Assembly (NCBI GenBank): GCA_030036955.1
Contig: JASHSF010000245.1
Location: forward strand, 1-35,461
Reading direction: 5' to 3'
DNA from: Nitrososphaerales archaeon
GTDB taxonomy: Archaea > Thermoproteota > Nitrososphaeria > Nitrososphaerales > CADDZS01
DNA length: 35,461 nt
Made by a program: the position numbers and the translations under genes. The notes beneath the pieces were generated by a model. That model had not been told where the DNA came from. It was given only the letters and a program-made list of their open reading frames with translations, and did no database searches. Shown piece by piece: positions 888 through 15,173 of this stretch. Positions within the stretch are counted from its first letter, which is position 1, and every line of letters starts with the position of its first letter.

Positions 888-2483
888 ATGACTGCTTTCA
901 CCATCCTAGGTATCGCGATCGATATCATCTACTCGTGGACGAGAATGCTCGTTGCTCTAGGTTTGAGCATAGTGTTCAGTCTGGCGGTAGGAATCGTTGC
1001 GGCGAGGAACAAAAAAGCTGAAGCCGTAATCATACCATTGCTGGACGTATTCCAGTCGATTCCAATTTTGGGGTTTTTCCCGATAGTCATTCTCGGAGTA
1101 ATTGATGTAGTCCACCCCGAATGGCTGGGAGTAAACGTAGCCGTAATACTGCTCATATTTACGAGCATGTCTTGGAACATCACCTTTGGCGTTTACGAAG
1201 CAGTTAGGTCGATCCCGCAGGACTATATCGATCTGTCGCAGATTTCCGGGTCTTCTTCTTGGCAAAGGATTGTTTCTCTTTACATCCCTTCTTCACTCAG
1301 CAGAATTGCATACAACACGCAGACTTCGTGGGCCGTGGGACTTTTTTACTTAGTTTCAAGCGAAATCCTGACGCTTGGCAGCAAAAACTACCAGGCTAGT
1401 ATCGGGATAGGCGTTGCCATCTATACATTCTACGATACAGGAAATTTCACTGGCTACATATATGCCATAATTGCTTTGATAATAGCTGTAGTCATCTGGC
1501 AGCTCATTTTCTTGCGTGAATTCTCGCTTTGGTCAGAGAAGTACAAATTTGTCGAAGAGCCCAGAGGCGAGACGAAAGATCCTTTGATGCGAGTTTATTC
1601 CTGGGTAAATCACCGGAGCATCTCGAAGCTGTTTCTCATAGCTCATGGAAGTGGAGTTTCGCGTTTTACGTCGTCGATAACTCGATTCAAGCGAGGTTTC
1701 AAGTACGCTTTTTTCATTCTGATTGTTTTGTTCGTCGGTTTCGAGCTCGGCGCATTTCTGCTCAGCCCGAGTCCAAGAAGCCTTCCGTCGCTCGCGACCA
1801 TTTTATCCTATGAATGCTGTTCAAGCCAAAGCGTATTGGTTGCTCTCGCCGTTTCGTTTCTGAGAATCTGGTACGTTTATTTTATCTGCGTGCTGGTAGC
1901 CGTTCCCCTCGGGATTGTAATCGCTCTTCATTCAAAGCTCTACGATACTGCTTCGCCCTTGCTGGAAGTGGTCGCGTCAATACCCGCCCCGGTGCTGCTC
2001 CCACTGTTTGTAGCCGACGTTACGAAAAACGGAGAAGCAATAGCCGCGATGATAATTTTCCTCGGAATGATATGGTACATAATTTTCAATGTGATGGCAG
2101 GAATAAGGAGTCTTCCTGCCGAGCTCTGGGAGCTGCGGAAAGGATTCCAAGTTTCGACCTATAACGCATGGAGGAATATTTACCTCCCAGCTTCAGCGGC
2201 AGCGTTCGTAACTGGTTCTATAACTGCTATCGGCGCAGCCTGGAACACGCTCATCATTGCGGAATACTTTAACCTTCACTTGAACGGGTCCTCGAAATTA
2301 CTAACTCAAGTGCAAATAGGGATTGGTAAGACGATCTCGATTGCTGTCCAATCCAATCCTGCGAATCTCACTGTTCTGACATTATCCATTCTTTCCATGA
2401 CTGCGCTGATAGTTGCATTCAACCTAACTGTTTGGCGGAGAGTTTATCACTATACTACTAAGAGGTTTACGTACAACAGGTGA
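888..2483 (+). CDS. NitT/TauT-type ABC transporter permease, two fused permease domains
   Basis: A 531-residue membrane protein built from two binding-protein-dependent permease domains in tandem. The first spans residues about 10-215 and the second about 310-520, joined by a hydrophilic segment (about 220-270) and an extra TM helix. Each half carries an EAA-type loop contacting the ATPase: around 'RSIPQDYIDLSQISG' in the first and 'RSLPAELWELRKGFQ' in the second. Most relatives are single-domain homodimers; the fusion would supply the whole membrane pore in one chain. The ATPase gene follows after about 65 bases. No substrate-binding protein gene is adjacent, so the substrate (nitrate, sulfonate, thiamine precursor or another anion or organic) cannot be told. 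Confidence 0.85.
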   Translation: MTAFTILGIAIDIIYSWTRMLVALGLSIVFSLAVGIVAARNKKAEAVIIPLLDVFQSIPILGFFPIVILGVIDVVHPEWLGVNVAVILLIFTSMSWNITFGVYEAVRSIPQDYIDLSQISGSSSWQRIVSLYIPSSLSRIAYNTQTSWAVGLFYLVSSEILTLGSKNYQASIGIGVAIYTFYDTGNFTGYIYAIIALIIAVVIWQLIFLREFSLWSEKYKFVEEPRGETKDPLMRVYSWVNHRSISKLFLIAHGSGVSRFTSSITRFKRGFKYAFFILIVLFVGFELGAFLLSPSPRSLPSLATILSYECCSSQSVLVALAVSFLRIWYVYFICVLVAVPLGIVIALHSKLYDTASPLLEVVASIPAPVLLPLFVADVTKNGEAIAAMIIFLGMIWYIIFNVMAGIRSLPAELWELRKGFQVSTYNAWRNIYLPASAAAFVTGSITAIGAAWNTLIIAEYFNLHLNGSSKLLTQVQIGIGKTISIAVQSNPANLTVLTLSILSMTALIVAFNLTVWRRVYHYTTKRFTYNR

Positions 2484-13188: not shown

Positions 13189-13983
13189 ATGACAACAGAA
13201 AGTGCAAACACCGCCGCTGCTGCAGCGACAGCAGGCTTTGTCGTAAAGTCGCTTACCCCTGCTGAATGGAAAGCCGTGACAGCGTCTATACAAGCTCTCG
13301 TAGAGGAAGCAACTTTCGATGTTTCCCCAGATGGGATATCTTTCAGAGCAATGGATCCTTCGCACGTTGCTCTAGTAGATCTGTTTTGGCCCGCAGGGGG
13401 CTTTGAAAAATTTGACTGCACAAAGTCGGACAAATTTACTGTGCGAGTAGAGGACTTTGCCAAGCTGATCAGAAGAGCTGACTCACGCGACAGTATAGAA
13501 ATTTCAAGACAGGGTTCTGAAATGCTCGCTCTAAAGATTGGGAGCAAGAGAGAATTCGAACTGCATTTGATAGAATCGAGTCAAGCGAGTACTCCTCTCC
13601 CGAAACTGAGCTACAATTCAAAGTTTACCATAACAGAGCCTGCATTTGATCGAGTCTTGAACGACGTATCGGTCGTTTCAAATCACATCACTATTGAAGC
13701 GAAAAAAGAGAAGCTAACGTTTTCCGGCAAGGGAGATACCGGAACGGCAATCGTTGAACTAGAGCGGGCGAGTCAGGAAGTACCGGAACTCGAAGTAAAG
13801 GACGACAGCAAAGCCACCTACAGTATTGAATACTTACTAAAGATTACGAAAGCTGCGGGGTCTGCTTCGGACATGATAAATTTCGAGTATTCAAGCAAAA
13901 TGCCCCTGCGTATGGCTTTCAAGCTCGGCGAAAAGGACGAAGGGCGAATCCACTTCTATCTGGCTCCGCGAGTTCAGGAATAA
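13189..13983 (+). CDS. pcn: DNA polymerase sliding clamp PCNA
   Basis: Sliding clamp that encircles DNA and tethers replicative polymerases, Fen1 and ligase. Two PCNA half-domains are visible. The N-terminal part includes FDVSPDGISFRAMDPSHVALVD, the most conserved family signature; the interdomain linker lies near residues 120-140; the C-terminal part ends with KLGEKDEGRIHFYLAPRV. An extra Ala/Thr-rich stretch of about 15 residues precedes the first conserved strand. Length (264) is close to the usual 245-260. Only this one copy is in the window, so whether the organism uses a homotrimer cannot be judged here. Confidence 0.95.
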   Translation: MTTESANTAAAAATAGFVVKSLTPAEWKAVTASIQALVEEATFDVSPDGISFRAMDPSHVALVDLFWPAGGFEKFDCTKSDKFTVRVEDFAKLIRRADSRDSIEISRQGSEMLALKIGSKREFELHLIESSQASTPLPKLSYNSKFTITEPAFDRVLNDVSVVSNHITIEAKKEKLTFSGKGDTGTAIVELERASQEVPELEVKDDSKATYSIEYLLKITKAAGSASDMINFEYSSKMPLRMAFKLGEKDEGRIHFYLAPRVQE

Positions 13984-14020
13984 ATCGATGCCCTAAGAAA
14001 GTAAAGTAGCGGGGGGTGGA

Positions 14021-14053
14021 CTTCCATCGCGTCAGACCTGATCTGATGCTTAT
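14021..14053 (-). other. tRNA-iMet intron 2 (T loop, 59/60)
   Basis: 33 nt interrupting the T loop between TTCAAA and T. Exon TTC can pair with intron GAA beside the 3' junction, a relaxed bulge-helix-bulge. Within the intron, CATC/GATG and CAGA/TCTG pair to give a compact hairpin. Removing it restores a normal 7-base T loop and a perfect T stem. Confidence 0.78.
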
Positions 14054-14075
14054 TTTGAACCACCGCTCTGCGGGT

Positions 14076-14136
14076 CACTCTTCCATTAAAGCTCTCAGTT
14101 GATTTGTTAACAATCACCAAAGAACATTTGTCGGAT
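14076..14136 (-). other. tRNA-iMet intron 1 (anticodon loop, 37/38)
   Basis: 61 nt at the canonical archaeal position one base 3' of the anticodon. Exon GCTC (14143-14140) can pair with intron GAGT (14080-14077) beside the 3' junction, as in a bulge-helix-bulge motif. Inside, TGATT/AATCA forms a hairpin with a GTTAACA loop. The ends could shift by one base, since both junctions carry A. Confidence 0.8.
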
Positions 14137-14321
14137 TATGAGCCCGCCGGGATAACCTGGCTTCCCCACCCCGCTAAGTTCGGATAACTGCTCAAGTTTT
14201 TGCCTTTGCGTATTAAAGGTTGACGGGATAGAATACGATTGCTGAGTCTTGCAAAACATCGAAAGATTGACAAGTTGATTCAGATTCGGTTCGTTGCAAG
14301 ATCAAGTTTCATTTGACAGAT

Positions 14322-15173
14322 ATGCGCCAAATCGGTATTCATGTATCAATCGCAAAGCAAATTGATTTTGCCGTAGATCGTGCAATCGAGGTTGCCTGCA
14401 ATAGAACGTTTCAAATCTTTACCTCGAGTCCGAGGCGCTGGGCAGCGAAAGAATTGGACAAAAACCAAGCTTCTGCCTTTCTGGAAAAAGCTCGATCAGC
14501 AGATTTTCGGCCATTCGCGCATATGCCATACATGCCGAACATTGCCTCCCCCAACAGGAGCTTCCACACCCAATCCGTAGAAGTCCTGATCCGGGAAATT
14601 CGGCGGTGTTCCATTTTAGGAATTTCGGATATTGTGGTCCACTTTGGGAGCCACCAAGGTTCTTCTATTGCGGAGGGGCACGAGAGAGTTATCTCCGCAT
14701 GCAGAACGGCCATTGAAAAAACAGATCGGCTGAAGGTTAGGATCCTTTTGGAAACTTCCGCCGGGACAAGAAACAGCGTTGGATCAAAGTTTGAGTACGT
14801 CGCAAGTGTTCTTGATAAGATAGGTGACAAGAATCGAACGGGAGCGTGTTTTGACACGTGTCATGTCTTCGCCTCTGGATATGATCTCAAAACCCCTGAG
14901 GCTTCCGCAAAGACGATCGATGACTTTGATGAAATTGTAGGACTCGATAGATTGTATCTGATTCACGTTAACGACTCGAAATCTGATTTAGGGCAAGCAA
15001 GCGACAGACACGAGCATATTGGTTTCGGAAAAATAGGCGACGCTGGTTTTCGGGCCATATTCTCAAACAAAAAGATTCGGGAGATTCCACTTGTGCTGGA
15101 AACGCCGATCGATGAGAGGCGCGGTGACAAAGAGAACGTGGCGCATGCAAAGTCGTTGCTGCCTAAAAGTTGA
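14322..15173 (+). CDS. nfo: Endonuclease IV (AP endonuclease)
   Basis: TIM-barrel, zinc-dependent enzyme of base-excision repair that cuts DNA 5' of abasic sites. Family motifs in order: GIHVSIAKQID at the N terminus, HMPYMPNIASP, VVHFGSHQG (metal His), LLETSAG (metal Glu), ACFDTCHVFASGYD (Asp and His ligands), VNDSK and DRHEHIGFGKIG, and PLVLETP near the end. All metal-binding positions expected for the family appear present. The ATG at 14322 begins directly with the conserved strand; a TTG at 14313 would add three residues. It converges with the RuvX-like gene, 4 bases apart. Confidence 0.93.
   Translation: MRQIGIHVSIAKQIDFAVDRAIEVACNRTFQIFTSSPRRWAAKELDKNQASAFLEKARSADFRPFAHMPYMPNIASPNRSFHTQSVEVLIREIRRCSILGISDIVVHFGSHQGSSIAEGHERVISACRTAIEKTDRLKVRILLETSAGTRNSVGSKFEYVASVLDKIGDKNRTGACFDTCHVFASGYDLKTPEASAKTIDDFDEIVGLDRLYLIHVNDSKSDLGQASDRHEHIGFGKIGDAGFRAIFSNKKIREIPLVLETPIDERRGDKENVAHAKSLLPKS

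What the first reader, a model, noticed from the sequence alone, without database searches (positions are those of the whole stretch)
14007..14175. Initiator tRNA-Met split by two introns, one of them in the T loop
Seen: after removing 61 and 33 bases the minus strand gives a perfect archaeal initiator (A1:U72, three G:C pairs in the anticodon stem, normal T loop). Both junctions can form bulge-helix-bulge-like pairings. Anticodon-loop introns are common in archaea; T-loop introns are known from some Crenarchaeota and Thaumarchaeota. Two introns in the single most essential tRNA are noteworthy, and automatic annotation easily misses such a gene.
Basis: partly seen in the sequence, partly recalled or inferred. 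Interest (0 to 1): 0.75.

Follow-up and report, generated by a model that had tools for sequence, protein, structure and literature searches.

The report
Two-intron initiator tRNA gene in archaeon
In a soil-type Nitrososphaerales archaeon, the only gene found for the tRNA that starts every protein is interrupted by two introns that must be cut out. This is real and conserved in its family, but it belongs to a known kind of archaeal gene, and relatives in the same order carry up to four introns in this same 75-base gene.

Summary
Minus strand 14175..14007 is a 169-nt precursor of initiator tRNA-Met(CAU). It has a 61-nt intron at the canonical site 37/38 and a 33-nt intron at 59/60 in the T loop. 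Spliced in silico it gives a perfect 75-nt archaeal initiator. The intron-tolerant match scores 122, against a maximum of 40 in 16,179 random segments.

All eight family genomes that hold the gene carry both introns at the same sites. Their mature 75 nt are identical, while intron lengths vary (25-73 and 32-66 nt), and the bulge-helix-bulge pairing is retained (97% and 94% of central-helix cells). It is the only copy found in this 83%-complete genome. The genome also encodes both splicing-endonuclease subunits and the RtcB ligase.

So this is a functional multi-intron archaeal tRNA, a new member of a known kind. Two introns in this tRNA are not exceptional here: of 128 genomes surveyed, mostly of the same order, 16 have 0 introns, 28 have 1, 61 have 2, 19 have 3 and 4 have 4. 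The four-intron cases exceed the maximum of three stated in the papers I could read. Splicing itself was not observed.

The parts
14007..14175 (-). Initiator tRNA-Met(CAU) gene, 169-nt precursor
   Evidence: Sequence; spliced form called Met(cat) by ARAGORN; score 122 against a null maximum of 40
14137..14175 (-). Exon 1, mature positions 1-37 (39 nt: acceptor 5' strand, D arm, anticodon stem 5' strand, anticodon)
   Evidence: Identical in 8 family genomes
14076..14136 (-). Intron 1, 61 nt, canonical position 37/38; relaxed BHB (central CUC:GAG, 3' bulge UG^A, inner UCCG:UGGA)
   Evidence: seven orthologues have a full CUCA:UGAG central helix
14054..14075 (-). Exon 2, mature positions 38-59 (22 nt: anticodon stem 3' strand, variable region, T-stem 5' strand, most of T loop)
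   Evidence: Identical in 8 family genomes
14021..14053 (-). Intron 2, 33 nt, position 59/60 in the T loop; BHB (central UUCA:UGGA with one G-U, bulges AA^A and AG^U, internal hairpin GC.UCAGA/UCUGA.GC)
14007..14020 (-). Exon 3, mature positions 60-73 (14 nt); CCA not encoded
14211..14217 (-). TATA-like box TTTAATA, about 36-42 nt upstream of A1; TTTAATA kept in 7 of 8 family genomes, TTAATAA in the eighth
   Evidence: Upstream comparison; promoter function inferred
13189..13983 (+). PCNA sliding-clamp gene, convergent with the tRNA gene; neighbour in all 8 family genomes
14313..15173 (+). Deoxyribonuclease IV (nfo) gene, divergent from the tRNA gene; neighbour in 5 of 8 family genomes

Best explanation
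This is the functional, apparently single-copy initiator tRNA-Met gene of a Nitrososphaerales archaeon. It is transcribed from its own TATA-type promoter as a precursor with two protein-spliced (bulge-helix-bulge) introns, at 37/38 and 59/60. The genome's alpha2beta2-type splicing endonuclease cuts after the second base of each 3-nt bulge, and RtcB joins the exons to give the 75-nt initiator. T-loop modification and elbow formation can only follow removal of intron 2. Shown here: sequence, cloverleaf, junction pairing, conservation and presence of the enzyme genes. Inferred: transcription, cleavage, ligation and order of events.
For: Perfect mature cloverleaf; far above chance. Eight family genomes with PCNA neighbours 69-81% identical in protein keep both introns at the same sites, with identical mature tRNA and variable-length introns. 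The central BHB helix is paired in 97% (37/38) and 94% (59/60) of cells at the predicted register, and in 25-56% at the slid registers. No second copy in this genome. EndA alpha (Tyr, His, Lys and the KPR loop motif), EndA beta without the His, and RtcB are all encoded. Upstream TTTAATA box conserved.
Against: No RNA data exist here, so splicing is not shown. The window's own anticodon intron has only 3 central pairs (A35 faces A), and an alternative fold is about 3.5 kcal/mol more stable; for the T-loop intron the explicit BHB fold is about 2 kcal/mol less stable than the minimum-energy fold. The genome is about 83% complete, so a second copy in the missing part cannot be excluded.
Confidence: 0.96

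Rival explanations
1. A decayed initiator tRNA pseudogene interrupted by insertions, with the working copy in the unassembled part of the genome.
For: The genome is 82.6% complete, and ARAGORN and Rfam do not recognise the unspliced gene.
Against: The mature sequence is 100% identical across eight genomes whose introns diverge freely, and both insertions lie at the same sites with BHB pairing. Every family genome with the gene shows exactly one copy, including genomes 94-96% complete.
Confidence: 0.02
2. Only the anticodon intron is a BHB intron; the T-loop insertion is removed in another way or is retained.
For: In the window the minimum-energy fold leaves the UUCA:UGGA helix open.
Against: The UUCA:UGAA-type helix with 3-nt bulges is paired in 94% of cells both in the 8 family members and in 35 order-wide T-loop introns that could be placed at 59/60, against at most 56% when slid. 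Intron lengths differ and they are far too short for group I or II introns. A retained insertion would break the T loop.
Confidence: 0.02

Closest known systems
Archaeal multi-intron tRNAs of Thermoproteales (e.g. Pyrobaculum calidifontis, 71 introns in 46 tRNA genes) and noncanonical introns of Thaumarchaeota (107 in tRNAscan-SE 2.0)
   Same: BHB introns at canonical and noncanonical positions, several per gene (PMC8450103, PMC3218864)
   Different: Here the gene is the initiator tRNA of a largely uncharacterised Nitrososphaerales family; some relatives in the order have four introns in this gene, while the papers read state a maximum of three
Permuted initiator tRNA of Thermofilum pendens (junction 59/60 plus intron 37/38; PMC3218864, PMC3978253)
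   Same: Interrupted at exactly the same two positions, 37/38 and 59/60, in the same tRNA
   Different: Here the exon order is normal and both interruptions are cis introns; no circular permutation
Split initiator tRNA of Nanoarchaeum equitans (37/38; PMC3218864)
   Same: Disruption of the initiator at 37/38 with BHB-type joining
   Different: One locus, cis-spliced, with a second intron
Crenarchaeal (alpha beta)2 splicing endonuclease with the Crenarchaea-specific loop (A. pernix 3p1z/3ajv; PMC12397907, PMC6379350)
   Same: Alpha subunit homologous over its whole length, with catalytic residues and the K-P-R motif in the loop region; a separate non-catalytic subunit
   Different: Complex formation and activity not tested; from a Nitrososphaerales genome

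Membership tests
Archaeal initiator tRNA-Met | Cloverleaf with CAU anticodon after intron removal | tested here: met
   ARAGORN Met(cat); all stems paired
Archaeal initiator tRNA-Met | A1:U72 and three consecutive G:C pairs in the anticodon stem | tested here: met
   Read directly in the sequence
Archaeal initiator tRNA-Met | Aminoacylation and use in initiation | not testable with these tools
   Needs biochemistry
BHB (splicing-endonuclease) tRNA intron, 59/60 | 4-bp central helix flanked by 3-nt bulges at the exon-intron junctions | tested here: met
   UUCA:UGGA, bulges AA^A and AG^U; 94% of cells paired in 8 orthologues
BHB (splicing-endonuclease) tRNA intron, 37/38 | 4-bp central helix flanked by 3-nt bulges | tested here: inconclusive
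   Window has 3 of 4 pairs (relaxed motif); 7 of 7 orthologues have 4 of 4
BHB tRNA intron | Cleavage by EndA and joining by RtcB | not testable with these tools
   Genes for EndA alpha, EndA beta and RtcB present; activity not assayed
Permuted tRNA | 3' part of the gene lies upstream of the 5' part | tested here: not met
   Exons are in normal order
Split (trans-spliced) tRNA | Exons at separate loci | tested here: not met
   All exons within 169 nt on one strand
(alpha beta)2 EndA with Crenarchaea-specific loop | Alpha subunit with catalytic Tyr, His, Lys and loop Lys-Pro-Arg; beta subunit without the catalytic His | tested here: met
   Alignments to 2cv8 and 3p1z_B for alpha and to 1a79 for beta; by sequence only

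The most novel reading that the evidence does not exclude
Across this archaeal order the apparently single-copy initiator tRNA gene undergoes recurrent intron gain and loss at about six recurring sites (acceptor 4/5, D loop, 37/38, variable region, 52/53, 59/60). The mature RNA hardly changes, and some species reach four introns in one 75-76-nt tRNA, one more than the maximum stated in the literature I could read.
Probability: 0.8. Interest if true: 0.55.

Novelty: new member of a known kind. Interest (0 to 1): 0.42.

Why it matters
If no second initiator gene exists, every protein made by this organism depends on the two-step splicing of one RNA, so EndA and RtcB would be strictly required for translation initiation in this lineage. 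The gene is invisible to ARAGORN and to Rfam at gathering threshold, so such genomes can look as if they lack an initiator tRNA. The order-wide series (0 to 4 introns in one orthologous tRNA whose exons barely change) is a natural data set for testing how BHB introns are gained, lost and tolerated, and whether they track the Crenarchaea-specific loop of EndA.

Tried and rejected
Pseudogene reading: rejected because the exons are identical in eight genomes while the introns diverge. Second initiator copy: searched with GGGCTCATAA in the own genome, single hit. Self-splicing intron: no Rfam hit, and 33 and 61 nt are too short. Permuted or split gene: exon order is normal. RNA folding of the window alone does not choose the strict BHB as the minimum-energy fold for either intron, so the case rests on comparison rather than energy. 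A MAFFT alignment of the T-loop introns was not useful for pair counting because of their length differences; register-based counting was used instead. Papers searched for four-intron archaeal tRNAs or multi-intron initiators in Nitrososphaerales: none found. The first survey alignment placed T-stem introns at consensus index 52; adding base pairing moved them to 52/53.

Full report
Observation. The minus strand from 14175 to 14007 reads AGCGGGGTGGGGAAGCCAGGTTATCCCGGCGGGCTCATA-[61 nt]-ACCCGCAGAGCGGTGGTTCAAA-[33 nt]-TCCACCCCCCGCTA. Removing 61 and 33 nt gives a 75-nt molecule that ARAGORN calls Met(cat) with every stem paired. With only the T-loop intron removed, ARAGORN itself places the 61-nt intron, and unspliced nothing is found. 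ARAGORN and Rfam find no tRNA in the window. An alignment of an initiator consensus that allows introns scores 122 at this place, 33 at the next best place in the window, and at most 40 in 16,179 Markov-model random segments.

Organism and setting. The gene lies between PCNA (13189-13983, convergent) and deoxyribonuclease IV (14313-15173, divergent). The nearest named relatives found with the PCNA protein are metagenome-assembled genomes of Nitrososphaerales/Thaumarchaeota. One of them, SubAcS9-71, is described as 'heterotrophic terrestrial Thaumarchaeota' (PMC10640624). The window's genome has 2.66 Mb in 296 contigs and is about 83% complete.

Comparison within the family. Eight genomes of the family, including this one, hold the gene. 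In all eight there are two introns at the same two sites, and the mature 75 nt are identical, while the introns range from 25 to 73 nt (37/38) and from 32 to 66 nt (59/60). PCNA adjoins the gene in all eight, at 69-81% protein identity in the other seven. Free divergence of the introns beside invariant exons is what a working, spliced gene predicts and what a pseudogene does not.

Splice-site structure. At the register expected for a bulge-helix-bulge motif (4-bp helix, 3-nt bulges, cut after the second bulge base), the exon bases C32-A35 pair with the intron in 97% of cells, and T54-A57 in 94%. When the intron strand is slid by other offsets the figures are 25-53% and 34-56%. Order-wide, 50 introns at 37/38 and 35 at 59/60 give 88% and 94%. 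In this window the 37/38 site is relaxed: CUC pairs with GAG, A35 faces A, the 3' bulge is UG^A and the inner helix is UCCG:UGGA. Energy alone prefers other folds for both sites, so the argument rests on conservation.

Machinery. The same genome encodes an EndA alpha subunit homologous over its whole length to the tRNA-splicing endonuclease 2cv8 and to 3p1z_B (A. pernix). It has the catalytic Tyr, His and Lys and the sequence KPR in the column of the A. pernix loop residues K44-P45-R46 (loop residues from PMC12397907). A second, diverged subunit lacks the catalytic His, and RtcB is present. This matches the alpha2beta2 type reported for Thaumarchaeota (PMC4090602), and the loop is associated with broad substrate use (PMC6379350).

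Wider survey. The initiator gene was located and parsed in 128 genomes of this family and its order. Introns per gene: 16 have none, 28 one, 61 two, 19 three and 4 four. With base pairing used to fix the junctions, 108 of 112 intron-bearing genes reach a full stem score. Recurrent sites are 37/38, 59/60, 52/53, the D loop, the variable region and, in families f2 and f3, the acceptor stem (about 4/5). Four-intron genes are L107, L093, L109 and L183. In them, the 52/53 and 59/60 introns show 4 of 4 central pairs and the 37/38 introns 3 of 4, while the D-loop intron of L093 and the acceptor-stem intron of L183 match the simple BHB template poorly. Genera differ internally (f9 genus g37 has 0 or 1, f10 genus g12 has 2 to 4), which suggests rapid turnover; I did not map this on a tree. 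The read literature states a maximum of three introns per archaeal tRNA (PMC8450103, PMC3293823, PMC6379350).

Mechanism. Most likely: transcription from the TTTAATA box about 40 nt upstream (kept in 7 of 8 family genomes, TTAATAA in the eighth), EndA cleavage at both BHB motifs, RtcB ligation, then CCA addition and T-loop modification. The last steps follow from known archaeal tRNA biology and were not tested. Whether the introns protect the gene from integrating elements (an idea in the literature for disrupted tRNAs, PMC4033280) or are simply tolerated is open.

Verdict. The gene is a new member of a known kind (multi-intron archaeal tRNA), and its two-intron state is common in its order. 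The more surprising part is the order-wide spread of intron numbers in one orthologous, apparently single-copy initiator tRNA, up to four.

Noticed in passing
L107 (G080), L093 (G099), L109 (G120), L183 (G010): Initiator tRNA genes with four introns each (acceptor or D loop, 37/38, 52/53, 59/60); the papers I could read state a maximum of three per archaeal tRNA.
   Followed up: partly
L075, L076, L077, L078, L127, L183: Initiator tRNA genes with an intron in the 5' strand of the acceptor stem (about position 4/5), seen only in families f2 and f3 of the survey.
   Followed up: partly
L006-L013 (own genome): Of 13 tRNAs above the Rfam cut-off in this genome, eight are 89-173 nt long and most appear intron-bearing; far fewer tRNAs are recognised than a full set needs, so many others are probably hidden by multiple introns.
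   Followed up: no
L022 (JAPCJU010000099.1) and L021: The MAG SubAcS9-71 encodes two PCNA-like proteins, 67% and 44% identical to the window's PCNA.
   Followed up: no
window 888-2483 +: A 531-aa protein with two stretches matching ABC-transporter permease (BPD_transp_1), apparently a fusion of two permease domains.
   Followed up: no
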